A stretch of 64,000 nucleotides of DNA, from the NCBI GenBank assembly GCA_963930775.1, contig OZ005689.1, positions 8,258,854 through 8,322,853 of the forward strand. Reading direction: 5' to 3'. This DNA is from Cliona cf. orientalis. Lineage: Eukaryota > Porifera > Demospongiae > Clionaida > Clionaidae. Position numbers and translations under genes: made by a program. This document shows positions 1-48,636 of the stretch, in pieces; the first letter of the stretch is position 1; each line of letters begins with the position of its first letter. The notes under the pieces are model-generated. The model did no database searches and was not told the DNA's origin. It was given only the letters and a program-made list of their open reading frames with translations.

Positions 1-3000
1 ACCTATAGAATACGAACTTGCTACAGTGAGCTCTTCCCATGTTTGCATCACCTGTACCTTCCTGGAGAGTTCTACAACTAACTGTGTGGCAGTGGTACAT
101 CAGCGAATCTCTCAGCTCAACTCTAGTGGACTGATGAACATTGAATCAAGTCACAAGTTCAACAGATCGATATCTGAGAACACTGCATATGGATGTATTG
201 ATGGAATTGACCTGGAGCGGTACCAGGTCGGAGTGATTGGTGGCAGAATGATAACCATGGAGCCAAAAAGTGAGATCATAATTGCACACAGGTGTTCATG
301 ATTCTTACATCTTCATAATACAGGCAAAAATAGAGAATCTGCTATTACTGGAGCTATTGTGGGAGGTACGTTATGTATTGGTAATGTATAATAGAAATTC
401 TTATGAAATTTTATGATATTGAAAGTGAGCTATTGATGAACTAATTATCAAAGTAGTTAATTTTCTGAAATCTGAAAATATTTGAAACTTAATTACATTT
501 AGGGTTGATAGTTTGCTCTGTGAGTACGTCTTTGATGTACATGCACAATATTATGTTTATATTTGCAGTGCTTGGAGGAATAGTTATGACTGCGGTAGTC
601 ACGGCAGCAGTGATTGTGGCAGTTGTAGCATGTACATGTTTGAAGAGAAGACGTAAAACAGCAGCACAGCCTATGTAAGTGTATTATGCTCTTTACATAT
701 TGAAGCAATGCCATACTGATTAATGCACAACATGCAGCTACAGTGAAGTTACCCCTCATTCAGGTTCACAGACTCACACTATAGTGGTGAGGAAATTAAT
801 GCAAATTGGACCCTTTGCTTAATTGATGAGGGATTTTTTATATATATTTTTCAGAATATTGAGAGTGGCTCTAGAGTTGCTGTTGAGAATGACTATGAGT
901 CAGCAGGGCTACCTGAGAGACCTGCTGAAGAGCAGCCACTACTGCCCCCTCCATCTTTGCCAGCTAGAATGGAGAATGATGATGGATCTTCCCCACCTGG
1001 TGTGTCCACCCCACATGTGCCTGGATCAGCAGACCATGGCACTCACACTTCATCTACTACAGCAGATAATGGTGCTGCTGATCCAACTGCTGAGAAGAAT
1101 TCTCCACCACAGCCACCTAGATTGGATGACAGTGCACCTGTGTCTGATCAGGGCCCTGCAAGTGCTTCACCTCATCAAGTTAATGGTGCTGGGGACCCAA
1201 CTTATGCTTCTGTTCTAGCCAGGATACCAAATACCATGCAAGAATCGGCAGATCATCACGCTTATACTTCACCTGCAGAAGAAAATAGTGCTGGTGATCC
1301 ACCTGGGAGACCTGCTGAGGAGTGTCCTCCTCCCTTGCCACCTAGGTTGGTGGATGATGGCGCCTCTACCCCACATTCCACAGACCTAAGCACACCTCAT
1401 CATGTCACCACAGATGATGGTGACCCAACTTATGCACCTGTGGTTACCACTACACCACATGCTGTGAGTCAACCTGCTGCTACTGAGAGGGTACCTTATG
1501 AAGACATCAAAACAAGCAGGTAAGTTGATACACACATTAAATTTTGCTAATGGTTTATAGTGACTATGCTGACATGTGGTTATCCTGCTTGAGCTTTTAT
1601 GGTAGGCTATTTCACCATCTTTGGTATATATGTTACTATGGTAACATCTAATGTCACTAAGACCATTCTCCAGTAGAGCATCCATAGTCAAGTCATGTTC
1701 AAAAAACTAACAAAACAGAGCTACCCTAGCCCACAGTGATTTAATCAGTGTACAAAGCCTGTATGATGGAGCACTGGTATACCATAGTAACAATACCAAG
1801 AACCTTAGATGATTTCCACCCGCTCTAACTGTGCCACAAGCGCAGTTAGAGCAAGGTATACATAGTTCATCTACTGGAGTTGGAGATAACTGTCATGTGG
1901 TATCCTGCTTGATTTATGATGACTGATGGTCTTCTTTTTTTCCATTCATGGTCTTAGGGCCAGCACTATGCCTTACCACAGTTGCAAATCATTTCCAAAA
2001 AAGGGCCTGTAGATGACTTGCATCAAGTTGTGTATACAAAGGTCAAGCTTCCTTCAATGACTCAAACTGGAGATCAGAACATTGATTGCACTTCTGATCG
2101 GGCAGGTAACACAGCTACATATACATATATTGACAACCTTCCCTTTATTTTTTATCCCACATATAATGTCCGGCATTTCTCCTCCCACAGTTACTCCTCC
2201 AGTTCCTTCTCGTGAAACAGCAACTGTTGCAGTCTGTGAACCTGTAACCACTGATCGGCTCTTCTCTTTCCTGCTGCCTCATGCCTCCAAGTGGCAGTCT
2301 CTGGGGGAAACCCTGTCATTAGATAAAGATCGACTAGAGGACGAAGTCTTCACCAACAACGAGACAGATGAAGCTTGTCTGAGAGAGATGCTGGAGCTGT
2401 ACATGATGAGATCAGATCTCGACCACAGCTGGGAGGAGGTTCACACTGCTCTAGAGAAGATAGAATCTTTCAGTGAGTTACCGTACAGTATTTGCTCTAA
2501 GTATTATTCAAACATTCTGATGAAAGTTGAATTGATTATTTCCTTCCTAATCATTGAATTTCAATTTCGCACCCTTATTAACTGAATGGCTATGCAGTAC
2601 AACATAGTAGAAGACAACTCAGAATTCAGCTTCCAATACAACGTACTGCATGTTAGAGACTTCCACTCATCACAGAGTGTGGCTACCACATTGTGGACAG
2701 CATCCGATCATGAGGAAACGAAATATTGTTTTGTGATCACTGTCAGAGAGCAGTGACACTAGAGCTGATAACAATAAACCTATAGTTGTTGGACACTGAC
2801 TGCTGTTTTTTTTCGTCACTAGTGCTTTCTCCGTGTTTTTCAGATCCGTTCTATTAACTATCTTTTTAAACACCAAACAAGTATAATGTTATCGGCCATT
2901 AAATTTGGATTGTTAGATGGCATTTGCTTTGAACACATGCGTATTTATTATCCCCATGCCTGTACATGACATGATCTCCAGGGTTCAAGTAGTGGTAAGA

Positions 3001-4875: not shown

Positions 4876-4956
4876 GTGAGACTTCATTGATACAATTATA
4901 GTGTACTGGTATACTTATGAACACTCACTCAACCATATCCCCAGTAGCTGCTTAGT

Positions 4957-5160: not shown

Positions 5161-5202
5161 TGGTTCACAATGATGCATGCTACATAGCACAAGGCTAGCT
5201 TT

Positions 5203-5552
5203 ATTAACCCTCGGCGCATGCGTGAGGGTTACGGTAGTCGTTCTGTGTGTATGTGTGTGTCTGTCTGTCTGTTACCACGCTAGCTGCTACATATCTCGCT
5301 TGCGAGTCCAAACTGTGGTGTTATAAGCCTTATGGCGTTCCAAACGCATGATTTGTGTGAATTTCGCAGAGAATGCTCCGTGTCTGTTGAAAAATCAAAT
5401 CATGCCTCCAGTCAAGCAGTGTCCACAGTGTTCATTCACTGTGTACCACTATTAATGAAGTAGGTATTATTATTATACGATCATCTTTTAATATAGCTAC
5501 ATGTACCTGCCTAGTATGTCATTACCATAAATCTCACAGCACCGAGGGTTTG
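5203..5552. mobile_element. Short inverted-repeat element ending AACCCTCGG
   Basis: The left end AACCCTCGGCGCATGCG and right end CACCGAGGGTT are inverted over about 350 bp. The interior is noncoding with a short TG/TC run (TGTGTGTCTGTCTGTCTGTT). It is probably a MITE; the target duplication is not clear. Confidence 0.4.
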
Positions 5553-5747
5553 GCACCAGTGGTGTTCATTTATCCATGGCATTATATTCATAAGCCAAGA
5601 GAACGCATGTGTCAGAGAAAGTAGCACTCGGCTTGTAATGTATTTGCTGGATACACATGTAAGATACTCTACACATTTTCAAGTCCCAGAAAGGCTCCAA
5701 CGAGGCCTGATTTTTTTTTCATAATTATCTCATAGGTTTCATCATAA

Positions 5748-6132
5748 TTTCTAGTCTCGTCCCCAGACCCCACCCCCAAAAGGAGGAAAAGGGTCTGGTG
5801 AACTTGGGCTGAATCCTCGGTTCTCGTTCTACAGCGCATGCGCATATGTACCAACAAGGCCATGCAAAGCTTGGTTCTGATTGGTCGCTATGGCTGCGTT
5901 TGCATGTGATCACATGCCCGCAACCGGCAGTAAAGCAAACCTTGAATCTGATTGGTGGCGAAATTGAATAGCTACACAGATGGTATAGCGATGTTGCATT
6001 CCTGCGGTAAGCTTGTCATATGACTGAGCCAAAGCTACAATCTCATTGGCGCGTGGAAATTCCTCAGCGCAGGTCCAAGGATTCTGCCCAAGTTCACCAT
6101 ACCCTTTTCCTCCTCGAGGGTGGGGTCTGATT
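5748..6132. mobile_element. MITE of the TCTCGTCCCCAG family
   Basis: The left end reads TCTCGTCCCCAGACCCC, then AAAAGGAGGAAAAGGGTCTG and GAACTTGGGC. The right half inverts this (GCCCAAGTTCACCATACCC, CCTCCTCGAGGGTGGGGTCTG). Related copies are at 8318-8589, 18485, 39092-39165, 39400, 39717 and 48746 in this window. Confidence 0.6.
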
Positions 6133-6170
6133 CAGACTGTTGGCTACCGCTATAGCCAGGATCACAGTTT

Positions 6171-7189: not shown

Positions 7190-10100
7190 ATGCTGCATAC
7201 TCTGATCCTTGTAATGTACTCCCTAGTATTATGTTGTCTGTGGGTACCTAGCAACTGCTGTGTGCATGTATCTTATCAACAAAAATTGCAGGAAATTGAA
7301 AGTGGTGCTTAATTTGGGACTTTCAGCTGTAGAATTGTATACTATAAGGCCAATAAAGTAATAAACAATTTCATTATGAAATTAAAATGCATGACTTCTT
7401 ATTGTCCCTAGCAAGTAGAACTCGCTGTAATTATTGTATTATTACCATCTTGTCCTTGCTGTGCATATTATAGCCAACTCAGGATTAACTCTTCCTTCAT
7501 GTAGGTCATGAGTGTGTTCTTCAGTGTGATAGTAATACAGGTGAGTCATAAATAATAGCTAATTGCAATGGTAGTAAATCATGACTCACTGCTTCTCGAA
7601 TCTGTCATATTCATTAATTTCAGGCTTTCTCAAAGTTCCATCTTCAATCAATGTCACTGTTGGACAAGAGAGAAGATTTCAATGTCAGCATTCAACTGCT
7701 GATACAATTACTTGGAGAGTCAATGGAACAAGATTATCTGACAATCATCCCCTTAATATTGTTACTCACACAGAAATGAGCAGCTCTGGATCCAGTAACA
7801 ATTTATCGTCAATGGCTGTTAATATTGTTCATATTCTAACCATCCAAGGAGCACAAGTTTACAATGAAACCACTATACAGTGTGAAGCGGTATTCTTTGA
7901 TTCGTCTCCTTCTGAGTTATCACCAGAAGTGGTCTCTCTAGTTCAAGGTATTATGGCATTGATTACTATTTGGTTTGTATGTCTGTGTGTGTGTGGGGGG
8001 GGGGGGGGGGGGGGGGAGGGGGGGAGCTTGGTATCGTATTTGGTCTTGGGCTCCCACTCCTAGGATTATGAGCTTGATTCCCATGCACCTCCATGGATGG
8101 GCCTTGCTACTGTGACTTTGAGCCAATCATAATATCCAAATTGCTCCAAAGTGGCTGTAATTTGGGAACCTGTATGCATGCATGGCTTTGTGTGTTGTGT
8201 GTGTGTTGTGTGTGTGTGTGTGTGTGCCGTGAAATAGACCTGCATGGCTTCAACAAGGGGTGGCAAACCAGCAAGGGTGAAATATCGATCAGTCCCTTCC
8301 AATTTGGTGGGATTTTAGATAGTCTCGTACCCAGGCCCTTCAAGCGGAGGAGGAAAAAGGGCCTGGTACACATTGCATGCGCATGCATGCGCCGGGGGAC
8401 CCCAGAAAAATGTGGGGTATTTGGATACTATCGTATACTCTCCGTTTATCACCCATAGAACTGTACGTCATGCAGAACCCGCAAACGATCACTATGGTAT
8501 CGCGACAGGTCTTATGGAGACTCCCGCGCATGTGCGTGCAGTGTGTACCAGGCCCTTTCTCCTCCTTGAAGGGCCTGGGAACGAGGCTATATAGATTTTA
8601 GATAGCAACTTAGCTCATAGAATTTGGTCCTTATGGTCATGGAAAAAGGGATGTGACCATGCACATCATAAATCCGAATCCCATGGGATTGTATGTGTTT
8701 GTATATATGTGCATGTGTGCATGCCTATAATATGTTTGTGTGTATGTGCATACGTGTGTGTGTTTGTGGGTGCATATATATAACATTGTATACCGGTATT
8801 ATGTATCTGTACTATGACATTGTGCTTGTTGGAGACTAGTGCATTGGAATTGATTATTATGCTCCAACTCAATTGTAGGTCTGTTGGATGCAGTGAGCAA
8901 TATTACTGTTAATACCAGTCAAGAAATTCAGGAAATTAAGTGGGATCCTCCCTTTTCTCTGGATCTCACAAACGTTGATCCAGATGTTATTTACTGTGTT
9001 GAGGTCTATAAAACTACATGTGGAGGCAATCCTAAGTCTCTCGTGACAAGTGATTGTACTCTATTTGAGCCTTACATGATATATATGCTAGATATTGTTA
9101 ATGATACTGATCTTTTGGAGCTCAAAATAATTCCAAGAAGTAACTCAAAAGGCTCTATAAATGGGACAGCATTAAGCATAAACGGTACATAATTATTATC
9201 TTACTGAATGCATATCATAGCAATGTATTGATTGATGTATAGAAGTGTATGCACTGCCTGAGATGGACCCTACTATCCACCAAATTGAGGACAATATCTC
9301 TCTGGTTTTACGCTCAAGGAACAGTTACGATAATATAAAGGTGTATATGATCTTGAGTGGTATAGCAAATCGTAATCAACAATAATAGTTTATTTTTGAT
9401 TGCACAGGGTTTATTTAAGATACCACATTCAGTTTTATTATCATTGGAATCAACGGATCATGTGTTTCCTACATCAGCTGAGTATGTGGCCATCACAAAC
9501 GTGACAAAGAATCACAGGATATATTTAAACTTTGATGGACTGCAGTCAAGAAGGCTTTGGAGTTATATACTAATGGTTCAGACATGTGACAACATTACCG
9601 TTGCAGATGCGTCTGAGTTAAGTATGTCCCATAATTATAGTTGATGATACACTATTAATATAATATATATATTTTTTATTGTTTAATAATATTATAGGCA
9701 CACATGGCATCCAAAACATAACCGTTAAGTCTGATAATGGTATCTATATTTCACTGGATTTCATTGACGGTTCAAATGCACTTGGTGCACTGATTGTTGC
9801 ATACTCCCTTACGGATGACTCAGACGTTCATTATTCCATAATTATCCGACAAAATAAAACTAGAATTCTATCACCATTAGTCGAATTTTCAAATACATTT
9901 TACAACTTGTCAACGTTTGTCATACCAGAGAATGGGTTACCTTTTACAAGAGCTGCAGCTTTACCTAAGGTGTTATTAAGCAATAATAAAAATGAAGGTA
10001 ATTATTAATTAGGAATTATAATAATTATATATACTTAATGTTATGCATGCTTAAATTAATATAATATATTATATACTGTAGCTAGTTAGCGAATTTTCGT

Positions 10101-12092
10101 TGTTAAAAATTTTGATTTTGTGCTAAGTGCTGAAATTTTTTTACACGAAATATATAGTTTACCTGTTACAGTACTAAACTATAGCACGCGCTTGATATTG
10201 ATGACGAATTATTACTCAAACTTCATTTTTGCGAACGAAATTAACCGTATACATTGAATTCATACTCTAATGTACCTTGAAATGTTAATTGGAATGCATT
10301 CACCCATGAATTTCATGCCCCTAATTATTATACGTGCATTGTATTTCCAATTTGTTTTGTCATTGGCCTATAATAATAATATAATATATATTATTATTAT
10401 GATACTATGATCACCAATGTACCTCTAGTTATGTATTATTATCTTTTTTCTTCTCACTGTAGGTGAAACAATGCGTAATTCCATCCTCGATGCTTATGCA
10501 ACCAAAACTATCAACAGTACATGTATCAAGTGTGTTTTTTACGATGAATCAAGTCAAGGTTGTGTTGTTGTGATCCATCCCAAAGCTTCACTGTTATCCA
10601 CTAGCTCCCATAATGTTATCGGTCTCATTAACATTGAAACAGAGTATTTTGATAGATCTGGTGATCAGGCAGAAGGTTGTATAAATAGAAAATCACTTGA
10701 GAATAATAGAGTGGTTGTGTTTTTATACAACAAAATAATTTTGGGACCACCGGTGTTTATTAGAATGATCCAACATGAAGGTGAGTATATAATATTAATA
10801 TTATGTATACTAGCTATTTTAGATTATGTATCAGCACTTACTATAGTGTTTATAACATTACTATAGATAATTCAACCAACAGACAGTTAAGGATCATAAT
10901 AATATTATCACTAGCAGGTATCATGAATAATAGTAATCATGTAATAATAATATTATTATGGTCATATCCCTTGCATGCAATGTTACTGATAATTATAGCT
11001 CTGGTGGTTGTGTTGTTTGCTACTGTTATTGTGACGATAGTTGTTGGGAAGATTCACAAGAGTAAGCTGTAATTATAAGAATATTATTCATAGGTCTGAG
11101 GCTTGCTAAATAAAATGTCAAAATTCTAAGTTTCAACGGATAAAATTATTCTCTTAATGATAATTCTAACTTCTAAGCTTACAATTTATAGTAATTCTCG
11201 TAAGTTCTTGAGATCACCTAACTAGTAATAATGCACCCTAGTTTAATCTGGTATCGATATTGATACTTTTATAAAATTAATTGGTTAATGACATGAAGCA
11301 CCTGTCATATCCTGCAATGGTGCATGTGGTAAAGGTCGTCAATACAATGCATTGTAGTGTTTACTGTCTTCATTGACGCCGGCATAGAGATCATGGAGTC
11401 TGAGACCGATTCTCAACAGCATATTACAGCTTCAAGACTTCAGATTGGTCATGGGCAAAGAATCTTTTATATGTTGCTAGGATTGATAAAAATCAAAAAG
11501 TTGAATTAATTTTTATAATAATAAAATTATGTTGTATTCGAAGTTAGCTGCAGTAATCACTTTAAGAGTTTATGATTAATATACTTTAACTAGTGCAACA
11601 CTGAGTCTGAAGTCATGACATAAGTATTATACCCATGACACAATAATAATATATTATTATGATAAAAATGCATACACATATCCAAAGTGAACAAACACAG
11701 ATCTGCTGACAGAAGTGTATCCAACATTACAACAGCTAACGTGGAAATGAAGCAATGCAGTGCCTATGAATTTCAAAAAATTGCTAAGAGGCCAGTAAAA
11801 ATGAAGGCTAATCCAGCATATGAACACAGAGAGCTAGCATCTACCAGGTGATAATAATAATCAATATTATTAATACTATAAGCATAGTGGGTGTGACATT
11901 TTGTAATACAACTCCTAATTAATCTAATTAGTTATTTTAATGACATACTACCACTATAATACATTGTTCATGTTATAAACCTTCCCATATCTGATTCAGT
12001 CTTTATCACTGATAATATTATTATTGATTATTGCCATCCTTTCATAATATCACTACAAAACATATAATAGGAATGGTGAAAGACAATCATAG
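7190..12092 (+). CDS. Receptor B: Ig + Fn3-like type I membrane receptor, short tail
   Basis: Exons: a possible signal peptide at 7190 (MLHTLILVMYSLVLCCLW; its donor is unclear), a 36-bp linker 7505-7540, Ig 7624-7947 (FQCQ, ITWRV, IQCEA giving the Cys-Trp-Cys set), Fn3-like 8879-9184 (WDPPFSLDLT, PDVIYCVEV, PRSNSKGSINGT), 9243-9340, 9408-9621, the GTHxIQ module 9698-9997, the Cys module 10463-10780, TM in two exons 10867-10917 and 10999-11061 (ALVVVLFATVIVTIVVGKIHK), and tail 11701-11847 (ITTANVEMKQCSAYEFQKI, NPAYEHREL). A short last exon 12071-12092 ends NGERQS then stop. Phases agree up to the TM. The tail exon then needs phase 2 whereas the TM exon leaves phase 1, so an exon is missing or the gene is damaged there. 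No Death domain was found. N-glycosylation sequons are frequent. Confidence 0.7.
8318..8589. mobile_element. MITE of the TCTCGTCCCCAG family in receptor B intron
   Basis: Left end AGTCTCGTACCCAGGCCCTT, then GGAGGAAAAAGGGCCTGGTA. The right end inverts it: TGTACCAGGCCCTTTCTCCT, then GGGCCTGGGAACGAGGCT. No coding content. It sits in the intron between the Ig and Fn3-like exons of receptor B, following a poly(G) run and a TG microsatellite. Confidence 0.6.
11317..11460. repeat. Dispersed repeat, copy 2
   Basis: This is the second copy of the repeat at 4957-5160 (GGTGCATGTGGTAAAGG, GACGCCGGCA, GAGTCTGAGACCGATTCTC, CTTCAGATTGGTCAT). It sits in an intron of receptor B, after the TM exon. Confidence 0.55.
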
Positions 12093-28146: not shown

Positions 28147-28150
28147 TTAA

Positions 28151-28890: not shown

Positions 28891-28924
<34 letters not shown>

Positions 28925-29167: not shown

Positions 29168-29215
29168 TTAAGCTTTCTACTATGCCATATACTGTGTACA
29201 GTAGATAAGTTTTAA

Positions 29216-34134: not shown

Positions 34135-37100
34135 CAGTCTTGTGAGGTGGCTTCTGACCTACACCTTCTAAGCATTGGCAGGCTGCTTGTTGGTTGTTTC
34201 TGTATTTATTTTGCTGTGTGTATGAGAGATAGACACGGAGAGAGAGGAGGTATAGCTTAGTATTGAGGTAAGGTTCAAATCAGAATAACGTACCTTTTAT
34301 CATTCCTTCGTTTCTTGAAATAACATACAGCAGCAGCTCCAATTATTGCTAAAAAAGATAATCCTGCTCAAAGAAACTGATCAAAATACATCAGGGGCGG
34401 ATCCAGAGGGGGTTCGATGGGCTCGGACGAACCACCCTTTCTAACTAGCTGTCTAGTACTTAGCCTGTATAGTAGTGTAAAATCTAGGCTTCATAGAACC
34501 CCCCTGCCTTTAGCTAGCTACAGTACTAGTACTAAAGCCTCTGTCTTTAGCTCACCTACTTGGATGTTTTTTAGTGAATATTTGGTCGATTTGAAGTCTT
34601 GGAGTGCATCACAAGACCTCGAACACGCAAAGTAGCGAGAAATGGGCGTGTTAACTAAGAATCCCCCTCTGATAAATCCTGGATCCGCCCCTGTACATAT
34701 AAGAAAACTCACCTATAATTGCCACAGCAAGGATGGCAATAGTAGTAAATAATATAGTAACAACTGTTGTTACAGTAACATCCCGCTGTCCACTTAAGCC
34801 TGATAGGCAGAAACAATTATTCATAACATTATTGCTCGTTAGTATTAAACTTTATATACCTCTTTCATGTCCAGTATAAAACTTTGCTACAGGTTTTCCA
34901 CGGATCATATTATCGCTAAATGCAAATACAGCAACGTGGTATAATCCATCTCCAATCTCGATACTGCCTCTAGCTTTTCCTCCTTGTGGCTCAAGCTTCA
35001 GTGAACTGAAATTAATCAGTTGGTAAGGGGTCGTCGTTGCACGTTTCCAATATATAGTAACACAGGCAGTAGCAGTAGAATTTTCCCTAAATAAGCACTC
35101 TATCAGGCACTCTTGAAAGTTAACAATGGTTACAATGGTGATGGTTACAAAAACATTGTCGTCCGTTTTGTCTTGTTGTGTACCTTTTGAAAGACACAAT
35201 GGCATAATATTATATTACTCAGTCTAAAGTCTGTTGTAGCAACAACAGTGAAAATTACCTTCAGTTTTGCTTCCAGTAATCGTAACGTTCCTAGGGAAGG
35301 CTACTGCCTGTTGTAAGGGCAATCCACTTTCATTTATGGCATAGAGCAGGGTTGAGTAAGTATCACTACCTAATCCTTTTAAATGGTTCATGACAATCCC
35401 AGAGTTACTATTTTTAGTTATAAGGTAGTGAACCTCTTCTTTAGAGTACACTAGAGCCACATTTCCCAGTGTAGTAGTGTTGCTGGCAATAAATTCACAA
35501 CTTATGTTGACCATTCCCGGAGTCAGGGCACTACTGGTTGTATTAACATCCTGAACAAAGTGTGTACCTACATGTACATTAACATTAATTTTGACATCAT
35601 TATAGGTGAGCATTAGTGATTGACAGGTGTATAAAATGTATCACTGTGACATTCTTTGCATACTTACTCAGCTCTAGATCCCACAGAATAGTAGACGTTC
35701 CGGCTGGGTTTGACGCATTGATCTCCACCACAAACAGCTGATGTGGTTGGAGTAAGTCAGTACAATTTAGAATCAAAGTGATGTTCTCTATATCGTGGTC
35801 AACCACAGTTGGACACGTGTACCATCTAGCATCAGTGATTGATCCCATGGTTACTTCATATGTCCTGGGCCTCCGTGACCCAGCTATTTCCTATCCACGC
35901 ACATGCAATAGCATGTTATGCATAGATCATTTAAGAATCATTAAAATAATACCTTCAACTGCTTTGGTAGATGGATCATGGCTGTAACAGTATCATTACT
36001 GATGTCAATTATCACTTCTACATCTTCAGACTTGAGTTTCCTAGGAGCTGTATTATGATGTGGTACAGCAAATAATGTTGTGGCTTACACAGTGGTATCC
36101 TTACTTAATTGAGGGTCTATCTCAATAATTATTGGTATCAGGAAACTGAGGCAGAAGCTAATTGGACTAGGCTGTGACTCTATAGCCCAAGCCTATTATA
36201 GCATTACTTAATTTGAGGGGAGTTGGACTGTCTGGTTGGCTGGGAGTGTAAGATGTTTGGCTTGTAGTTCAACTCCATTATTAGTCTTTCTTGGCTCAGG
36301 ACACTCACCATAAATCATATTAGGTAAGCGGTGGCGTCAGAAGCGGTATGGTTGCTATGGCTCGGCCGTACCACCTTTTCTGATGGCTCACCTATAGATC
36401 GAGCTATCTACAGTTGTATACTAGCCTCGTTCCCAGCTCCTTTGAGGCATGGATACCAGCATAGATATCTATGGTACAAGGCTACAGTTTTATGAGTAAT
36501 TACCATGACGACCATTACTAATAATAAATGCTCATGGCGTAGTCTACGCATGCACACCGATGGAGCTGCCACGCCCCCTCGCTGGTCAGCCTTACCAACT
36601 AAATTGCTTCCTACACTACGCCTCTTGGTAAGTCACCGAGTCAAACTACCTTAGCAGCCACATGTACCTGTGCCAGGTGTCAACCTGGTATCATACTATG
36701 CGCAGCTGCATGCCAGCACCTGTTGATCTGGTGTATTAAACAAAGAAGGATGAGACGTTCATACCTCGTGGGATCTGTTAAGTGTATTTACACACAAAGG
36801 ATGATCTAAGATATCTTGTTAACCTAGGAAAAGACATGCTGTGCAACATATCTCACAATGTAGCTACCTATGCTTACAAGAGTGTATACAGAGTAACACT
36901 ACAAAGTGAATGTGAGACATGTATGTATAGGCAAAAATTAAACTAGTTACAGTTACTCACTGTTGTACAAATATGTTTCATTTGTAGTTCCATTCATAGC
37001 TCCCGGTACGTTACTTCTGGGAGTAACAACAAACTGAAACAAAGAATCTGAATTGGCTGGTGTGAAGCTGTATTGTGGCTCAATAACATTGCAGTCACTG

Positions 37101-37615
37101 ACTACATGAATGTGTAGGTCCCTCTGTAAGCCTACATCGGTAACTTCATAGATATCAATACAGTAGACAACATCTGGATTGGTATCATTTAGGTCTAGAG
37201 AAAATGGCTGTGTCCAGCGTAGTTGAATTGGAGTTGATATTGGAGAGGAAGTGACCTTTAAGTGACCAACTGCACTTAATTGACCTATGGGTGTGGAGAA
37301 TATGACATCAGCGTTGGTAATAGACCCCTCCATTACATGACCTTTCCTTATATGGCTTGCATTAGAAAAAAGGGAAAGACAATAGAAAGTCATTATACTG
37401 ACTAGCTGAGCTCTCACAGCCACAATACTCAAAGATCACAATATAATATATAATTTCATGTATTATATTGAATGCGTCCAGCCCATCGTGCTTGGCGGGG
37501 ATTTATCTGCATAGAGCCCAGCTCTTTAGGAGGCTGTTTGGGAACACCAATATCAATCTATAATTATCTTCTCAGCCGGCCAAGGTGGCCCATTACATCC
37601 GCCTTATTCCCTCCC

Positions 37616-37650
<35 letters not shown>

Positions 37651-38745
37651 TTTTGCATGCAATTCTAATTATTAGCTATGGCTATGCTGTTTGCATGCAT
37701 ACCTTGAACAAGTAATCTTGCTGGAGTTGAGTATTCAACATCCACTCTTTCATTTCGTCTTGCATATGTGATACACACAATTTCTGTCCCATTGTAGCGT
37801 GCTAAAGCTTTAATAACAAGTGCCTCTACTGCTGCCCCACGTCCTTCTGTCCTGATCGAACCATCGTTTGTATCGATGTTCCGGAGGTGCACCCCATCAA
37901 TGGTCCAATCAATAGTCCCAGAGTCTGTTGGATGCTGACAGAGAAATTCAGCTTCTAGTCCTTCAGCTTTAACAATGGTAGACATACTGTAACTCTCTGT
38001 GGAAATTAGATCTAAGTCAAATTATGCAATGTGATGGGATGGGGTGGGTGTGCAAAAAGAATCAGTCATAACTATTGGCCATACTAAACGTCTGCCCTGC
38101 ATGTACCCTTGGTAGCTATGTGTCTGAGGCTGCAACAGCCCGGCCGCAATTTAGACTCTAAATTGCGGCCGGGCTGTTGCTCCACTGCACAGGGCCGGGG
38201 GAGCCGCTCCGGCTGCTCAGGCCATGGCCTGAGCAATATCTGGTCTGATTTTCATAGCTATGCGCTAGTTGGGCATTCCTGCAACGCTGAAACTATATGA
38301 ACCACACCTACCGTGTGTTCTGCGCAAGCGCTTAAGCGCATGCTCGAGCATCATCCATGAACTGAGAGTTATTAAAGGCTCAAAATGTCCACCCCAGAGA
38401 TATTCAGGGGGAAGGGGATATGTTAGGCCCCCGTACCCCTTGCATATATTATTATTATGCTGCCACTTTAGCCTCACCATAATTTTCTACCTTCCCCCGG
38501 CCCTGCTGCATAACTGAGGTGCAAGACCACGCAGGTCCATCCTCATTGTCCATGCACCATTACATATGCTACAGTAACTTGCTACAAGTTTAATATAAAC
38601 TTGTATTAATGAGGCCACTCCACGCTTCACCTCAGTACCGTGGCACCAGCTCAGTGCAAGATCGCAAAAGATTATTTAGTGTAGTAAACTCACCTTGTAA
38701 ATTTAATAATATTAAGAGTAGCACCACAACCAATCGTCTTTTCAT
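34135..38745 (-). CDS. Receptor D: Ig + Fn3-like type I membrane receptor, tail incomplete
   Basis: Exons downward: signal peptide 38745-38694 (MKRRLVVVLLLILLNLQ), Ig 37996-37703 (FLCQ, IDWTI, IVCIT), Fn3-like 37284-36961 (WTQPFSLDLND, PDVVYCIDIYE, TPRSNVPGAMNGT), 36047-35953, 35890-35668 (second Fn3-like half: QLFVVEINASNPAGTS), GTHFVQ module 35567-35259, Cys module 35183-34860, TM exons 34799-34713 and 34348-34294 (TTIAILAVAIIG.. AAAVCYFKKRRNDK), and a short tail exon 34167-34135. Every junction keeps frame from ATG through the TM. The first 36-bp linker seen in B and C is absent. No further tail exon is convincing before 33 kb, so D may be a short-tailed receptor or may have lost its tail. 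A 302-bp MITE sits in the intron between the TM exons. Confidence 0.77.
34392..34693. mobile_element. MITE with CAGGGGCGGATCC ends in receptor D
   Basis: The left end CAGGGGCGGATCCAGAGGGG and right end CTGGATCCGCCCCTG are inverted, with TACAT directly repeated on both sides. It sits in the intron between the two TM exons of D. Its ends match the element at 16380-16719. Confidence 0.75.
38132..38180. repeat. Perfect 49-bp palindrome (24-bp arms, 1-nt spacer)
   Basis: Arms 38132-38155 and 38157-38180 are exact reverse complements (CAGCCCGGCCGCAATTTAG in the left arm) around a single C at 38156. It lies in the first intron of receptor D. Its design, perfect arms with a lone C at the centre, is the same as at 12950-13034, but the sequence differs. 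Confidence 0.9.
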
Positions 38746-40553: not shown

Positions 40554-43500
40554 TTAAGGCTCAGGATCCTTAATATCATCATTGGTTATTTCATAGTGAT
40601 CTGATTCTGAAAAAAATAACAAAAATTTAACAGTTGAAACTGAGTTCAAGAATTGAAGCTAGCTTATTATGTAACTATGTAATGCAGGATCATGGTGCAA
40701 CAAAGTAAGAGTTTGGGTATAGTCATTTTAGCATGCAAATGCCACTGGAACTCATAATAATTATTGAGATCTAAGACTAATAAATTTTTGTTCGACAAAA
40801 ATTTTGTCAAGCCCACTGCAGCTACATTATAATAATTATTAATGTTTCACATGCCAATGCAATAAAGGTTGCGACATCCTATATCCAATCATTAACAGGG
40901 GACAAAAAAAATCAGCATGATAAAAATTTTGTCAGTGAGAGCAGCAGGTGCAAAGGTGAATTAAGACAAATTTTCTCCTATAACTTGCTTTCTACAAACT
41001 AAATAATGCAGTGAGTAATTATTACTCACTATTATTTAGTTGTAGAATTACTCACTACAATATTAAATTTTTAGATGGTTCTATGTAGCCTGGTAAATAA
41101 TCAGTAAGGTGTTGATACCAACACAGGCTGAAAACGGGAATGTGGAAAAGAACCGGGAAGCTGCCGGGAATCGACATAAATGGCTGTTGGGTGTGAGACT
41201 GCTGTATAGCAGTACCACTCAGCAGTATGTAATGTGGAGTGGACTGGTGGCAGTGGGTGGTTGTAGCTTAGTGGTTAGAGCACTGGCGGCTCAATCCAGC
41301 TACCTGCGTTCGATTCCTGGCGGCTTCCTGCATGGTTCTTTTCCACATTCCCTTTTTCAGTATCAAGACCTTACAATGTCATATTAAATTTAGTTCTGTA
41401 GAAAGCAAGTTGGACATTATCATCATAAACATTGGTCTTGTTACATGCTACAATGAATGGTCATTTTTCTCATAGCAGGTCACATATTATTATGGTATGA
41501 TGTAAATTTTAAAGTGCATGAATGTGAGAGAGAAGAATGTGTGAGAGATGGAAGTATGGATAATTATATACATGTGAGTTATTGTGAGTGTATGCATATC
41601 ATGTATGTGTGTGCCACTGTGTGTCAATGTGGGGGTGAAGGAGATTGAAAGAAAGAGATGCTACGTATTGCCCAACCTTTTGTATTAGCAATTTCTATAG
41701 CTCTGTCCATTTCTTCCCAGCTATGTTCAAAGTCAAAATTTTTGAAATAGAACTCCAACATTGCTTGAAGACAACCTTCATCTGTTTCATTATTTGTGAA
41801 TATTTCATCCAAGTGATCTTCATCAAATTTGAGTGCCTCTCCTATTTCTTTCCACTTGGTGACCATGGGTATTAATTTTGACATGACCTCTTCAATAGTC
41901 GGCACAGTATTGTTCCCTAATCAAGGATTCCAAAAGTGAATCTTATTAGCATTGCTATTAGCTATTGACAAGACTATACTCCAATTATAACATATCACAA
42001 CATTCAAGCATACAATGGGCTATTCCAGTTAATGAGGATATAATAATACACTCCTATGAAGGAGATTTCATTAAGTACTGAAGGATCGATTTTGATGCGA
42101 TTTATGGTATTTGTATTGTCGTAGGCATAGCTATAATATAGTACAGCATGACCGTACCACATTTTGGGCCTCCAGAGTCTATTAAATTGTTTGACTCCTG
42201 GAAATTTAATAGTCAATTTTTTTCATGTTCAGAGTGAACCGTACCACATCAATTTTACTACTTTTTAAATTTATCCATTGTGGATAGTAATGAACTTCAG
42301 AAGTGCTGAGGGGACATGATAGTAATTGGTGCTCATCCAGGGTGTGGAAAAGATTATTATCGGGCAAAATGGGGATTTGATTAGTTTAAAAATTAATGAT
42401 TAGTATTGACTTAAGTGAGTGGTGTATGGCCATTATCTGGAATAGCCCAATTCAAGTTACTCAGATATTACAGAATGCAACAGAATCACTAGATTTGAGC
42501 ACATTGGTGTACGAAGAAATATACGGTATGCACTGGACTCGATGTGGTCATATTCACATCTACAAAGGTTTGCAAATCTGTGATCCTGATTTAAATTCTA
42601 ACCAATATTTATTATTGTGAGTATAACATACTAAGAAGTGGTGGATTATCTTGACTGGATTCTTCATTAGGAGTAGTGGGTGGTGTAGTTTGAATCCTGA
42701 AAGTGTTTTCGGTAGTTTGAGATGGCTGTACCTCGCTGTAGATGACCATGGTCAAGTCAGCAGGAGATGCTTTTTCTGCATGTTTATCCTTAAAGTTATC
42801 AAAAGTGAATAATAATAATGTTATGGGAAAGTAGGTTAAGATCAGATTACGATTTCCTAAACATTTCCTAGGAGGATCAACACGCATGCACAGACATATA
42901 AGATATTATAGTATTCTATTAATGTATGCGTGCTCACGTCATACTATGCACATAACTGTTAGCATGCATAATATTTTAATAATAGAGTGACTCATACACA
43001 ATCGTGCCCATTTGTATAGTGTAATGTTATCTCTTGTGTAGCTATATGCATGCGCACACATAACGGGATGCATGCAAGTGCACTGCAATTAATACAATGT
43101 ATTACTAACGTTTATCCTTGCACTACCCTATTTTACGTACACTCATCCCATGGCTGGTAATTTTCCTGTAAAAATATTGTTTACTAGGGAACTAAATGCA
43201 CATGCACACACATGTCATGATGACTCATAGTAAGCTGTGTGCATACACAACTTAGATGCACACAAGCTCCACTACATCCACTCACTTAGATGACACAGTG
43301 TACGTACATTGCTAGTTGTACCCATTCTCACACCTGAATAGGCCAGTGTATATACCGTACTTACTGTAATTTAGGCGCCACTGTAATATAAGCTCCGTCT
43401 GGCCATTTATGGAATTTTTCCTTTTAAATATAGCACCGAACGTCGATGGAATTACTTTTAGGTGGCGCTTAGTAATTACAATTTCATACCTTGTACCACA

Positions 43501-46500
43501 CGCCACTGTTATTACTAAGCGCCACTCTAATATATAAGTGCCATTCACCATCGAAGCGAGTTTTTAATGCTTAAATGTAAGTGCCAAGCGAGGTCGGAAT
43601 TAATTTTTCCTGGTGCTTAAATTACACAGTAAATACGGTATATATATCTCGAAGACAAAAGTCACCACGTACAGAATAAACTGTATACAAAGCACCAAAA
43701 TTTCTATAATACTACTTGTACTACTGTAACAATGCGTGGGTGCATCAAAGGCACCGCCTAGTGTTTATCTAGCATAAACCACCAGGGTGTAGTGTATAAC
43801 TATAATAGGGAATTAATACTACTCTTACAATAGAAGGTATAGCTGCTCTGCCTCGGTGTCTATTTGCACACTACCGTGTATATTTAATAAATATTATAAG
43901 TAAGTCAGTAGTGAGCAGTTTATCTGTAACATATGTAAGATAATATTATTAGTAATACGTGGTTCATGTGTAGATACCAGTTACCAGCATTTCGTCCAAA
44001 ACTTTTGATTTGGGATGCACATGAACATTCCAAATTGAAATTAATTAGGTGTCACTGAGGATTTGTAGTACCTCAATCTTGTGCAATTCACAATAAACAA
44101 CTGATTCAGAAGTGGGTTGTATTTCAATACATGATGTATTTGTGGCGTAGATATTAGGCTCCATAATCTGTGATCTGTATGTGTTAGGAAAACTGTGATT
44201 TTCTGTATAAGAAAAATATTAATTTCATGGACACCTGTTTCTAATTTTTTGTCTCTGAAGTTTGACCTTTATTAGGATAACACCAGCTATTGCTGCAAAG
44301 ATTTAAAAGTAGTATTGAAATATCTAGACATAAGATGACACTTGAAGCTGACATACATGTGCATGTTATACACAGAGTAGTAGCCACTGCTATGAGAGCA
44401 ATAACGATGTACAATATTTTCACATTGGGAAAATTATCAGTTGGCACTGTACTATCCAACCGAGGATTGTCAGACTGAGTAGATTCTGGAAGGTATAGAT
44501 GCATGCTTTAATGTGTAAATGTACAATATCACTATATACCATGATAGCAATTATGATAATATTATTATGCGATGCTGATAACTCTTTTTTTCCTCATATA
44601 CAAATTATAGCATACCTTCCCATATAATGTTATCCCACATGATATTTAGTGGCTGCCCATACACCATACCCTTTTCACTACTGAAGGCAAACACAGCACC
44701 TTGGTTAGCCATGATAATATTTGGATTAGGATTCTCTATACAATCGTAAGCCTCCGTTTGAAGTTGATTGATTTTCCATGTGTTTAAAAATATCAAATCT
44801 TCATGGTGAGTGTTGACAAAACTATTGTAGTAGATTAATACACACGCTGAAGCAGAATCATCGTGGAACACACACCGAAGGCAGAAATTAGTTTCATTTT
44901 GAAATACTGCTGCTGATACATTGAAAATAGGTTGGGGTGTGTACCCAGAACCTATACAATTATATATATAATGGGAACACTTAGCATAAATAAATGCTAT
45001 GGTCTAAGATACATACCTAAGAAATCTGGTGGATCATCATCGATAAATACTTGGTTTGGATACCTTGCTGGTTGTTCCAAAGGGAGACCAGTATCATTTA
45101 TTGTGAACAAAAGAACTGAATACTCTTTGTTACTCAGACCACTTAGACTTGCACTGATGTATTCTTCATCTAAGTTTTCAGAGATGAGATAATGAATGTC
45201 ATTATCATGGGAATACACCATGGCCAAGTATCCCAAGGCTACACTGCTATTGACGAGAAACTTGCAGCTGATATCCATCCGACCAGGTTCTGTGTGACTG
45301 TGTGTCACATTGATCTCTTGAATATAGTGTGTGCCTATTGAAAATCAGTCAATGGCAACAAGTTTGCATTAAATTTGTGAATCACAATTGATACTGAAAA
45401 TAGAAGTGAAGCAAAAGTACGGATAACAGTGACAAAAAGCACTAAAACAAGAGTAGTAGTGATGGACAACTAATACTAGGAGACATCCGATACATTATTT
45501 TAGTATGATCTAAAGATGTCTTCTAGTATTAGTTTTTCATCACTGCCACCCTTATTTTGGTGCTTTTTGTCACCATCACCCCTATTTTTGCTTCAATTTA
45601 TATGCGTATATGCATAGTAATTGCCGTGGCGCTGTATTTGAAAATTCTTGACAAATGGCTAAACTTTCATATGCAGTGGCTTCTGAAACTATTCAAGACG
45701 TTGATGTGGCACCATGTTACACTATTTTAAAAAGAAAGAAACAGAAAAATATGAAGACATGATTTTTGTTACCCTCGGGTAACAGCACCCTCTCAGTGCA
45801 TACCGATAGACATTCTAGGTGTAAAAATGCTTGTAGAACATGATAGTCAAGGTTATAATTAAATCCTGAAAATTTCTGCTCTTGAGATACCGTATATAGG
45901 ACGGGTTTTAATTGCGCAGTTTAATAATAGCGTTCTAGTCAAGTCAGGCCAAATTGCAAATCTAATAATTGTGATGGACGACCCCATACCGTACTGTAGT
46001 ATACATGAACGTTTATGTTTACAAATCTATTAATTGCGAAACGTAGAAAAACTTGCAATTCGCATTTAATAGATACTCGCAATTAAAACCCAACCTACGG
46101 TAATTCTATTTTGTAATGCATTATAATATTATGTAGTGCTACGTATAACATCCCAGCCATATAGATACAAATTTTGCACACATTGGTATGGTAGTAGCCA
46201 TATACATACACCCTTGAAACTTGATTTGTGCATGTGCATATATCCAGGAGTATATTACATGCATGCACTTGTCTGGGATAATTTAAAACATGCATGAATA
46301 TGGGCATGAATTATTGTGGAATAAGTGTTTTGTACAATATTATTATAAAGTGAAAGCTAAATTATCGTTTGTTCTCACATTTGAGTAAACAATACCTACA
46401 ACTATAGCAAACTGCCATTGAGCATTGAACATAACACCTAGTAGCTGGATCATGCAGCTTGTTCTGTTTTCATAATGTAGTCATTATGAGTTGTACTGCA

Positions 46501-48636
46501 TGTATGAATCCAATGACACTTACTTATAATCAAATCTTGAATAATGATGGCGCTTCCAGCACGATTAGAAGCACTGATATTCACCATGTAAAGGTTATTC
46601 GGCTGGATTATACTGTCATTGAGTATCAGTGCAACAGCATTTTCATGATTGATGGGGTAGAGTATAACTTGTGTTTGTTGTTGATGTTCATGTTGATCTT
46701 TCATAATTGATTTCAGTGAAATTTTATATATATCTGGTCTATTTGGACCACATAGCAGCTATAATAATTATTGATAAAAGAAGAATAGCATCAGGATATA
46801 TTATCTGAGCACACCATGTGACTTACATCATCGTCGATCAAATTGATAGTCACTATGATAGCTTGATCACCTTGAAAATAATTTATGTTGACGTCTATCA
46901 TAATATTGCTTTTAGTTGGAAGAAACTGTGGCTCTGCAAGTGTAGTGTAATAATAATATATTGAAAGAACACATGCACACACATGGTTGATAGCTATGCA
47001 TGAACTATTCAACATCCTTTAGTTAGTGCCTGTAACTATTATTAATAGGACTAATCTATAATTAGTATCTGTAAAATTTCTTGCATATGGTTAGGGTTGT
47101 TGCTAGGTTACTGATAGCAGTTTATGTCATGTTTTGGGCATTATTGCTAGGATCTGAACATGTTAGACACGATTTAGAAGACCTCTGGGCTCAGTATGCT
47201 GAAAACAATAATTAACAGGATCTGAGAATAAGGTATAATTTCATGCAGAATGCAAAGTTTCGACATGGTATAATAGTACTGTGATCATTGTATGCCATAG
47301 GGGGTCTGGAGGCACCCCCCCCCCCCCCCCCCAGAATGTTTCTGAGGTGTTCTGGCAGTTATTTTCTACTAATATTATATTATCATATCTACTGAGTGTC
47401 TAACCAATGTGAGTTAGTGGTCTGTGATGCCATCTATATAATGTAGTGTAATAGACATTAGGAAATTTGACCAGCCCCTCTTTTCAAAGTGGGAGGGGAG
47501 TTCAGCCCCCTTCTTCTCCGCCCCTGCACCTGGACCAGAACGTTAATTTTCGTGCTCTAATTTTGCGCCACCTGACATGAGGTTGGTAATTATTTTTTAG
47601 TTGCATGACATTGTTAATTAGAACGGATACAGTACAGCCTTGAAATTATGCGCGATCTAAAACTAAAATTCAGCCTCCGCGTGACATTACCCCTTTTCTC
47701 AGATCCTATCACACATTAATAATATTATTATTATGCTTTGAAGTAAGCTTACTTAAGGTGTGATACTTTTAAATATGCTTTCACTCACTCTTAAATGAGA
47801 ACGAAGCATTTATATGGCTTGGCATCCCATCTATTGCTCCCTGCACATTGCTTCTGGGAGTAACAGTGAACAGAAATATATCTCTAGGGTTTGGGTTCTC
47901 ATTGACAATTGTTAAGTTGTATTGCAACTCAAAAATGCAACTGCTGCTGAAGTTCCCTCTATTCATGTTGTAGAACCTTTCAACGTCCACACAGTAGACA
48001 ATATCAGGCTCAGCAGTGGTGAGGTTAAGTGAGAATGGTGGTTTCCAACTTAAGGAGATGAGTGATGATGTTGACTGATATTGAAGGTTATCGATTGCTT
48101 CAAGGGGACCTAATAAATAAAAAAAATCCAATTTAGATACGCATATTATAATAATTAAACTTTGCAACCTTGAACAACAAGTGTTGCGGGTGTAGAGTTG
48201 ATAAATTTAGTAGTTTGATTGGCCCCAATGATATATATTATACACACCACCCTCGATTCATTAAACTTGGAGATGGCAGGGATGATTAGTGCTTCGGTAT
48301 TGTTACCATATCCCTGTTTTTTTATCGGCAGATCTGATTCAGTAGCATTCACATTGCGAAAAGATACTCCATTTATTTGCCACTCAATACTATCATCATC
48401 ACTTTGAACCTGACACCAGAATATAGCATCCAAACCTTCAGTTTGTACTACATCAGCAGGCCATTGGGAACCTATAAATTATTTTAATTCATATTATAAC
48501 AGGAACTGAGGTAGCTAGCTACAATCTTTCAGCTTATCCAATCCACGTTGCTTCACTTACTTGATGAGATTCGGATCAAGGAGACTGTGACTGCTACTGT
48601 GACTGCTAAGTTTATGTTCACAGCTGCAGTATTCAT
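40554..48636 (-). CDS. Receptor E: complete Ig/Fn3-like receptor with ITIM-like tail and Death domain
   Basis: Thirteen exons chain in frame for about 817 aa: 48636-48561 signal peptide (residues 1-25), 48471-48169 Ig (26-126; FWCQ, IEWQI, VVCII), 48109-47789 Fn3-like (127-233), 46933-46827 and 46758-46524 second Fn3-like region, 45334-45017 GTHYIQ module (348-453), 44951-44616 Cys module (454-565), 44485-44357 and 44292-44235 TM (KILYIVIALIAVATTLCITC, then basic residues), 44192-44072 tail with NIYATN and VVYCEL, 42788-42632 tail with VIYSEV, 41916-41677 Death domain (721-800), 40606-40554 last exon (DHYEITNDDI then stop). A surface receptor coupling tyrosine phosphorylation to Death-domain signalling is inferred. 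The DD exon donor (gttggg) is weak but gives the right phase. MITEs occupy several introns. Confidence 0.83.
41250..41330 (+). repeat. tRNA-derived (SINE-like) sequence
   Basis: An A-box-like TGTAGCTTAGTGGTTAGAG is followed 40 bp later by a B-box-like CGTTCGATTCC, the spacing of a pol III tRNA promoter. A tRNA cloverleaf does not close well (the T stem mismatches), so this is more likely a SINE head than a functional tRNA. It lies downstream of the last Death-domain exon, in an intron of receptor E. Confidence 0.5.
41677..41916 (-). other. Death-domain exon of receptor E
   Basis: This phase 1-1 exon of about 80 residues has a helical Death fold: IEEVMSKLIPMVTKWKEIG, then EALKFDEDHLDEIFTNN, ETDEGCLQAMLEFYFKN and FEHSWEEMDRAIEIAN. 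The spacing and the Trp in HSWEE match receptor A. The preceding exon ends in phase 1 and the last exon restores frame, so this is part of E and not a separate gene. Confidence 0.8.
43354..43640. mobile_element. TACCGTA-ended MITE in receptor E intron
   Basis: Left TACCGTACTTACTGTAATTT and right GTAAATACGGTA are inverted. The interior repeats GCGCCAC and GCTTA words. Same end type as 18593-19027 and 45893-46102. Confidence 0.6.
45410..45595. mobile_element. Long-arm foldback element in receptor E intron
   Basis: The two halves are imperfect inverted copies: GACAAAAAGCACTAAAA, then AACTAATACTAGGAGACATC, are answered by GATGTCTTCTAGTATTAGTT and TTTTGGTGCTTTTTGTC. The loop is about 25 bp. There is no coding content. 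Confidence 0.65.
45893..46102. mobile_element. TACCGTA-ended MITE in receptor E intron
   Basis: Left TACCGTATATAGGACGGGTT and right AACCCAACCTACGGTA are inverted, and both continue into TTTAATTGCG-type sequence. This is a third member of the TACCGTA end class, inside the intron between exons 46758-46524 and 45334-45017. Confidence 0.6.

What the first reader, a model, noticed from the sequence alone, without database searches (positions are those of the whole stretch)
1..48636. Five-member cluster of Ig/Fn3-like receptors, some with Death domains
Five paralogues share exon order, phase and signature motifs (for example PDxxYCxEV and TPRSNxxGAxNG in the Fn3-like exon). They differ in Ig number (two in C, one in B, D and E), in the 36-bp linker exon (present in B and C), and in tails (Death domain in A and E, none found in B, C or D). 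Clustering, divergence outside structural residues and tail switching resemble immune or allorecognition receptor families. That role is inference.
Basis: partly seen in the sequence, partly recalled or inferred. Interest (0 to 1): 0.85.

Follow-up and report, generated by a model that had tools for sequence, protein, structure and literature searches.

The report
Sponge immune-type receptors with swapped tails
The five genes belong to a family of about fifty mostly clustered receptor genes in a sponge, built from immunoglobulin and fibronectin-type domains, in which almost the same outside part is joined to one of two very different signalling tails, as in the paired immune receptors of vertebrates.

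Summary
The cluster is real and much larger than reported. The window fits chromosome 1 of the sponge Cliona cf. orientalis (by assembly sizes). Genome searches with three exons gave 53 family loci: 28 at C1 7.97-8.46 Mb (holding the window), 21 at 11.24-11.82 Mb, four elsewhere. Two tails alternate. One is long, with PPxPPR repeats, tandem ITIM-like tyrosine motifs and a Death domain (A; E a variant). The other is short, with a CxAY...NPAY tyrosine pair (B; 14 copies seen). Tail type does not follow the ectodomain tree. Two genes 85-91% identical in aligned blocks through the ectodomain lose all detectable similarity about 150 bp past its last exon; one continues into a Death tail, the other into an NPAY tail. 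This is paired-receptor anatomy. Selection is purifying, without strong diversifying signal. Recognition of self, non-self or microbes is likely but inferred; allorecognition needs polymorphism data. Nine searches of open-access papers showed no such sponge family.

The parts
1..269 (+). Gene A: membrane-proximal Cys (Fn3-type) exon; upstream exons (signal peptide, two Ig, Fn3, linker, GTH) lie left of the window, from about -4616
562..657 (+). Gene A: transmembrane segment followed by KRRRK
733..795 (+). Gene A: SYSEV tail exon (also in g8145, g8188, g8233)
855..1517 (+). Gene A: proline-rich tail exon with PPxPPR-type repeats, two DPTYAxV motifs and ITIM-like VPYEDI at its end
1958..2086 (+). 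Gene A: tail exon with second ITIM-like motif VVYTKV; four matches in the genome
2232..2462 (+). Gene A: Death domain (profile match bounds)
7624..7947 (+). Gene B: Ig (I-set) exon
8879..9184 (+). Gene B: Fn3 exon
9698..9997 (+). Gene B: GTH exon (Fn3-type fold, modelled on C's)
10463..10780 (+). Gene B: Cys exon (Fn3-type fold, modelled on C's)
10983..11066 (+). Gene B: transmembrane segment
11666..11848 (+). Gene B: short tyrosine tail ORF, CSAY...NPAY, Y-to-Y 18 residues
23919..23960 (-). Gene C: candidate signal peptide (weak)
22628..22924 (-). Gene C: distal Ig exon
21797..22111 (-). Gene C: proximal Ig exon
21398..21691 (-). Gene C: Fn3 exon
20314..20604 (-). Gene C: GTH exon (structure predicted)
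19317..19598 (-). Gene C: Cys exon (structure predicted)
17723..17824 (-). Gene C: transmembrane segment followed by basic residues
16976..17011 (-). Gene C: possible tail end HDYYEVNVNIAI (unconfirmed)
38686..38745 (-). Gene D: candidate signal peptide MKRRLVVVLLLILLNLQGEF (not matched in other genes)
37703..37996 (-). Gene D: Ig exon
36961..37284 (-). Gene D: Fn3 exon
35668..35883 (-). Gene D: extra half-Fn3 exon (Fn3b)
35259..35567 (-). Gene D: GTH exon
34855..35199 (-). Gene D: Cys exon (ORF bounds)
34714..34779 (-). Gene D: transmembrane segment; no tail motif found
48169..48471 (-). Gene E: Ig exon
47789..48109 (-). Gene E: Fn3 exon
46519..46758 (-). Gene E: Fn3b exon, acceptor out of phase with the Fn3 donor (skipped, or disrupted)
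45017..45334 (-). Gene E: GTH exon
44700..44951 (-). Gene E: Cys exon
44355..44423 (-). Gene E: transmembrane segment
44075..44170 (-). Gene E: tail ORF with NIYAT and ITIM-like VVYCEL
42714..42755 (-). Gene E: ITIM-like VIYSEV
41677..41916 (-). Gene E: Death domain exon

Best explanation
A large germline family of type I surface receptors in a demosponge that works like paired immune receptors. One or two distal Ig domains, on a stalk of three Fn3-type sandwiches, bind a surface ligand (inferred). One gene class ends in a long tail with proline-rich SH3-type sites, tandem ITIM-like tyrosine motifs and a Death domain. The other ends in a short tail with a CxAY...NPAY tyrosine pair. Genes with nearly the same ectodomain carry either tail because recombination in the intron after the last ectodomain exon exchanges tails. 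The same or a similar ligand can therefore give different outputs: phosphotyrosine signalling through SHP-like SH2 phosphatases and/or Death-domain signalling, against NPxY/phosphotyrosine signalling. Shown: architecture, clustering, two tail classes, tail exchange, purifying selection. Inferred: surface expression, ligand binding, phosphorylation, opposing outputs, and a role in recognising self, non-self or microbes.
For: At least 53 loci, 49 of them in two intervals of one chromosome. Nineteen of 29 parsed groups in the fetched stretches have Ig, Fn3, GTH and Cys. Ig: PDB profile hits Robo1 at 6e-16. Fn3: of 14 PDB profile hits up to E=1, 13 carry names of Fn3-bearing proteins and one is named 'hypothetical protein'; best 8e-4. 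GTH and Cys models (pLDDT 79.7 and 81.7) match chiefly Fn3 domains and Fn3-derived monobodies. Related signal peptides in A and other A-like genes. Death: 7 of 7 match PF00531. The first ITIM-like motif is kept in 5 of 5 Death-type tails compared; the second is VVYTKV in four and TVYSEI in the fifth, the gene of the other cluster. Strict ITIM matches: 11 in these five tails against 1.18 in shuffles, 0 of 2000 as high; related rows are not independent. NPAY tails: 14 in the fetched stretches, Y-to-Y 18 in 10, 16 in 3, 19 in 1. Tail switching: T and Death labels need 4 changes each on the ectodomain tree, starred branches force at least 2 each, shuffled labels do as well in 127 and 230 of 500. 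Breakpoint: g8145 and g8176 align in four blocks at 85-91% up to about 150 bp past the Cys exon and not beyond; g8145's tail aligns with A and g8188, g8176's with g8248. SH2-SH2-phosphatase order at three places.
Against: No transcript, protein or ligand data; models rest on homology and splice signals. Mean dN/dS is below 1 in every domain; pairs with dN>dS are 7 of 36 for GTH, 2 of 28 for distal Ig, 2 of 36 for Cys, 0 for the rest in A-like genes. Only 8 of 209 sliding windows reach pN/pS over 1.2 with pN over 0.12. Of three window Ig exons scanned singly, only B's matched an Ig family. A and E Death domains score below Pfam's cut-off one by one and the Death profile found no solved structure up to E=0.1. 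Vertebrate-type activating partners need a charged membrane residue: 1 of 6 NPAY-gene segments has one (Asp in g8366). NPAY tails are not ITAMs. B's tail keeps the NPAY but not YxxV at either tyrosine. Tails of C, D, H, g7974 and g11788 are unresolved; g8233 has both ITIM-like motifs but no Death exon was found.
Confidence: 0.6

Rival explanations
1. Allorecognition complex: the receptors and their ligands are the highly polymorphic self-markers that decide fusion or rejection between sponge individuals, as Alr genes do in Hydractinia.
For: Similar anatomy to the Hydractinia complex: dozens of clustered IgSF genes (at least 41 Alr loci, PMC11067881 passages); ITIM and ITAM-type motifs on Alr candidates and ITIM/hemITAM on Botryllus receptors (PMC12065747 passages). 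Two intervals on one chromosome, tail exchange, one- and two-Ig forms.
Against: No polymorphism data; purifying selection between paralogues; no strongly hypervariable window. Paralogue comparison does not test allelic diversity.
Confidence: 0.25
2. Innate receptors for microbes or symbionts: the family recognises microbial surfaces and the Death tail triggers NF-kB or cell death.
For: Death tails in a genome very rich in Death domains (150 of 150 scored matches over cut-off, of 1292 first-look candidates). In two other sponges some Ig-domain and Death-domain genes change expression after microbial signals (PMC6208332 passages).
Against: No expression or binding data here; ITIM-like tails are more typical of receptors for host ligands (general knowledge).
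Confidence: 0.3
3. Ordinary cell-adhesion or developmental receptors expanded by tandem duplication, with no immune function.
For: Ig plus Fn3 is a common adhesion layout; PDB hits of the Ig profile include Robo, Dscam and NCAM; selection is purifying; a review ties sponge IgSF mainly to adhesion and intercellular recognition (PMC11999971 passages).
Against: About 50 mostly clustered copies, exchanged tails, ITIM-like plus Death tails and rearranged copies are unusual for adhesion receptors (the judgement is general knowledge).
Confidence: 0.3
4. Mostly a decaying or mis-assembled array: duplicates, haplotigs and pseudogenes.
For: Some exons hold stops or frame breaks (for example C1:8371144 and C1:11259223); E's Fn3b is out of phase; two cluster-2 loci give identical scores; reported primary k-mer completeness is 60.5%.
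Against: Nineteen parsed groups have all four domain types in open frames; mean dN/dS below 1 in every domain; tail motifs conserved between clusters about 3.5 Mb apart.
Confidence: 0.08

Closest known systems
Hydractinia Alr family (allorecognition complex)
   Same: Dozens of clustered, divergent single-pass IgSF genes with pseudogenes; ITIM/ITAM motifs reported on Alr candidates (PMC11067881, PMC12065747 passages).
   Different: Here I-set-like Ig on three Fn3-type domains; Death domain in one tail class; polymorphism unknown. Sequence homology to Alr was not tested.
Botryllus fester co-receptors (FcoR)
   Same: 53 loci reported, type I Ig receptors, ITIM against other tyrosine motifs, signalling motif swapped between related forms (PMC12065747 passages).
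   Different: FcoR have a variable-type Ig, sushi and two C2-type Ig, and no Death domain is mentioned in the passages seen; Botryllus swaps motifs by alternative splicing and between alleles, here the swap is between genes.
Vertebrate paired receptors (KIR, LILR, SIRP, PIR; from general knowledge)
   Same: Clustered; nearly identical ectodomains joined to ITIM or non-ITIM tails.
   Different: A charged membrane residue in only 1 of 6 NPAY-gene segments; Fn3-type stalk; Death domain; non-ITIM tail carries NPAY.
Sponge Ig-TIR receptors
   Same: Sponge Ig receptors with an immune signalling domain (PMC6208332 passages).
   Different: One gene and two genes in the two species of that paper, with TIR; here about fifty loci with Death or NPAY tails where read. 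TIR was not searched for.
Death-domain receptors (TNFR, p75NTR, UNC5; from general knowledge)
   Same: Single-pass receptor with cytoplasmic Death domain; UNC5 also has Ig domains.
   Different: Ig-Fn3x3 ectodomain and ITIM-like motifs before the Death domain; ectodomain shared with partners that end in NPAY tails.

Membership tests
Immunoglobulin superfamily (Ig domains) | Paired Cys, core Trp and Ig profile match | tested here: met
   C, W, L, C invariant in 18 of 18; B reaches Pfam's I-set cut-off, D's and C's distal Ig exons match no Ig family singly; 5 of 18 match Ig_3 at E<=0.01; PDB profile to Robo1 6e-16. The Tyr usual two residues before the second Cys is not conserved.
Fibronectin type III | Sequence profile match for the Fn3 exon | tested here: inconclusive
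   Pfam fn3 in 3 of 15 members at E<=0.1, best 0.0057; DUF4945 in 4 of 15, best 0.015. PDB profile: 14 hits up to E=1, 13 with names of Fn3-bearing proteins.
Fibronectin type III | Fn3 fold of GTH and Cys exons | tested here: met
Death domain | PF00531 profile match | tested here: met
   7 of 7 exons at E<=0.1, best 8.1e-6; A and E singly below the curated cut-off.
Death domain | Six-helix fold | not tested
ITIM-bearing receptors | [SIVL]xYxx[IVL] in the cytoplasmic tail of a type I receptor, conserved | tested here: met
   First motif 5 of 5; second VVYTKV in 4, TVYSEI (T at -2, not strict) in the fifth; E has VVYCEL and VIYSEV.
ITIM-bearing receptors | Phosphorylation and SHP recruitment | not testable with these tools
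   SH2-SH2-phosphatase orders exist in the genome; binding is not shown.
ITAM receptors | YxxL/I, 6-12 residues, YxxL/I | tested here: not met
   0 of 14 NPAY tails have L or I at +3 of the first Tyr (V in 11). Spacing fits in 3 of 14 (Y-to-Y 16) and is 18 or 19 in 11.
Vertebrate paired receptors | Shared ectodomain with exchanged tails | tested here: met
Vertebrate paired receptors | Charged membrane residue in the non-ITIM partner | tested here: not met
   1 of 6 NPAY-gene segments (Asp, g8366) and 0 of 4 Death-type segments checked. It works like one, but is not filed as a member.
Allorecognition locus | Extreme allelic polymorphism and co-segregation with fusion/rejection | not testable with these tools
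   Only one assembly of one individual is held.
Hydractinia Alr homology | Sequence or structure homology to Alr1/Alr2 | not tested
   No Alr sequence was compared.

The most novel reading that the evidence does not exclude
A self/non-self receptor complex of a sponge: about fifty Ig-Fn3 receptors, nearly all in two intervals of one chromosome, acting as paired receptors whose ITIM-plus-Death tails and NPAY tails compete over shared, polymorphic ligands. Paired ITIM-type recognition would then reach back to sponges, with cell death wired directly into the receptor.
Probability: 0.28. Interest if true: 0.95.

Novelty: new variant of a known kind. Interest (0 to 1): 0.72.

Why it matters
A 2025 review states that the allorecognition candidates of sponges, cnidarians and ascidians are not conserved with each other, and that ITIM/ITAM motifs nevertheless link cnidarian, ascidian and mammalian systems (PMC12065747 passages). 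A sponge family with ITIM-like tails, gene-to-gene tail exchange and a Death domain in the same tail would carry that logic to one of the earliest animal branches, and gives exact loci at which sponge allorecognition or immune recognition can be tested.

Tried and rejected
Pfam did not recognise the Fn3 (2 scanned), Fn3b (1), GTH (1) or Cys (1) exons one by one; family alignments, PDB profiles and predicted folds were needed. A profile link between the Fn3 and GTH exons was not found; GTH and Cys are weakly linked (55%). The GTH profile had no PDB sequence hit and the Cys profile only a chance-level one. A 36-bp linker in B and C was looked for and not found. Positive selection was looked for by pairwise dN/dS and sliding windows; no domain-wide signal was found. 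For the Ig rows the A-like gene g8394 dropped out (one Ig exon incomplete), leaving 8 of 9 genes. An ITAM reading of the NPAY tail was rejected; the three tails of 16 spacing come closest. A Death-like ORF after g8089 (C1:8092071-8092595) looked similar by eye but Pfam gave no match and it is not counted. One weak Cys match on C9 (30 residues, one stop) was left out of the 53-locus count. Tails of cluster-2 genes could be looked at for two genes only, for lack of sequence; one stayed unresolved. SH2 and phosphatase genes were not modelled; the three SHP-like orders rest on position alone. Paper searches: (27 aimed at genome notes, 58 at Alr); I saw listings, and passages of PMC12639293, PMC11999971, PMC11067881, PMC12065747, PMC6208332 and PMC12723187; no whole paper. 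The library holds open-licence papers only.

Full report
What was given. The finding described five Ig/Fn3-like genes (A to E) with two tail types in a 64-kb window and suggested an immune or allorecognition family. The window is C1:8258854-8322853 of a 216.8-Mb assembly held in 149 contigs. C1 is 37,495,003 bases. A genome note for the sponge Cliona cf. orientalis gives 217.17 Mb, 19 chromosomes and a chromosome 1 of 37.5 Mb (passages seen). The identification rests on these sizes; no marker gene was compared.

The observation. A six-frame self-comparison of the window found the repeated exons. A is the 3' part of a gene on the + strand; B is on +; C, D and E are on -. Ectodomain exons have splice candidates of phase 1-1, apart from E's Fn3b exon. 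What did not hold is listed in the observation check: the number of genes, the missing tail of B, and the 36-bp linker.

Extent. Forty kb on either side already held at least four more genes. Searching the whole genome with D's Fn3 exon gave 47 matches, with E's GTH exon 36, and with C's Cys exon 43. Merging 125 of these 126 (one weak C9 match dropped) gave 53 loci: 28 at C1 7.97-8.46 Mb, 21 at C1 11.24-11.82 Mb, one at C1 12.09 Mb, two on C18 and one on C5; 31 hold Fn3, GTH and Cys in order. The tool scores only best candidates, so this is a lower bound. I could read 364 kb in all, window included and 6.2 kb of it N: 344 kb of the first interval and two 10-kb stretches of the second.

Tails. 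Class one (A, g8145, g8188, g11821; g8233 without a detectable Death exon; E a variant) has a proline-rich exon (PPxPPR repeats in the four A-like genes), ITIM-like [VI]xY[ED]DI, a second exon with VVYTKV (TVYSEI in g11821), and a Death exon. E has VVYCEL and VIYSEV before Death. For g8086 and g8073 only the Death exon was found. Strict ITIM matches number 11 in five tails against a mean of 1.18 after shuffling (0 of 2000 as high); the rows are related, so the stronger point is that the motifs survive in g11821, about 3.5 Mb away, where much of the exon no longer aligns. Death exons: E's close relatives (40-54% identity) are five, each 1-2.2 kb 3' of a family Cys exon; 7 of 7 family Death exons match PF00531. 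Class two has a short tail with CxAY and NPAY; 14 copies in the fetched stretches, Y-to-Y 18 residues in 10 (B among them), 16 in 3 and 19 in 1. A genome search with one such tail gave 12 matches, two of them outside the intervals.

Tail switching. On a tree of 21 ectodomains, Death tails (5 rows) and NPAY tails (9 rows) need four changes each; well-supported branches force at least two each; shuffled labels do as well in 230 and 127 of 500, so tail type does not follow the ectodomain. Long branches warn against reading deeper joins. The sister pair g8145 (Death) and g8176 (NPAY), support 91/93, aligns in four blocks at 85-91% over exons and parts of introns, up to about 150 bp beyond the Cys exon, and not beyond; each tail aligns with other genes of its own class. 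This is direct evidence of exchange in that intron. It does not exclude that either gene also uses unseen exons.

Selection. Among nine A-like genes (eight for Ig) mean dN/dS is 0.59 (distal Ig), 0.49 (proximal Ig), 0.34 (Fn3), 0.76 (GTH), 0.50 (Cys); Death exons 0.35 in 3 pairs. Pairs with dN above dS: 7 of 36 in GTH, 2 of 28 in distal Ig, 2 of 36 in Cys, none in the others. Eight of 209 sliding windows reach pN/pS above 1.2 (with pN above 0.12), five of them in GTH. The genes are constrained, which supports function; rapid diversification of Ig domains is not shown. The Cys exon is the most conserved ectodomain exon family-wide (median identity 58% against 34-45% for the others), as expected of a shared stalk.

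Readers of the tails. The genome has SH2, SH2 and tyrosine-phosphatase matches in this order within 2 kb at C8:9936138-9938107, and the same order over 8-16 kb at two places on C4: candidate SHP-like enzymes. Beside the first interval lie kinase ORFs and an SH2 ORF.

How it most likely works. Paired receptors: shared or similar ligands bound by the Ig end; long-tail members signal through tyrosine motifs and Death, short-tail members through NPAY. That the parts are receptors with exchanged tails is well supported; what they bind and which sign each tail has are inferred. The recognition task (individuals, microbes or neighbouring cells) is open; I put allorecognition at about a quarter.

Against the known. 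Closest in logic are Hydractinia Alr and Botryllus FcoR and vertebrate paired receptors. Two tests fail: the NPAY tails are not ITAMs (0 of 14), and a charged membrane residue is seen in only 1 of 6 NPAY-gene segments. The joining of ITIM-like motifs and a Death domain in one tail is, to my knowledge, new; nine searches of open papers showed no such sponge family. I rate it a new variant of a known kind.

Noticed in passing
window 28198-30309: Two tandem copies of a unit of about 1065 bp; most translated pieces are identical between the copies.
   Followed up: no
window 56636-58201 (+): ORF of 521 aa with DUF3504 and Phage_integrase matches: a Crypton-like tyrosine recombinase (the name Crypton is recalled).
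   Followed up: partly
L008:5386-6753, L021:5471-7690, also C1:8410215 and C1:8462072 (-): Class C GPCR ORFs (ANF_receptor plus 7tm_3 in the two scanned; the other two share a printed stretch) recur between receptor genes, as if duplicated together with them.
   Followed up: partly
L027:2403-3540 and 5371-5835 (+): Protein kinase ORFs and an SH2 ORF with tyrosine and proline-rich stretches nearby lie just beyond the first interval; another SH2 match lies at C1:8490139.
   Followed up: partly
C8:9936138-9938107; C4:7505653-7513694; C4:7445030-7460998: SH2, SH2, tyrosine-phosphatase order: candidate SHP-like genes.
   Followed up: partly
C15 7.2-8.3 Mb; C7 1.89-2.14 Mb; C19 5.40-5.52 Mb: Dense arrays of tyrosine-phosphatase (C15) and SH2 (C7, C19) matches.
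   Followed up: no
C1:11284573-11287230 and C1:11469057-11471725: Two cluster-2 loci give identical scores in two searches: a recent segmental duplication or a retained haplotype copy. Sequence could not be fetched.
   Followed up: partly
whole genome: Very many Death domains: 1292 first-look candidates, 150 of 150 scored over the cut-off.
   Followed up: no
C1:8350982 and C1:8356354 (+): Death exons of another kind inside the cluster, with no family Cys exon upstream on that strand in the stretch parsed.
   Followed up: no
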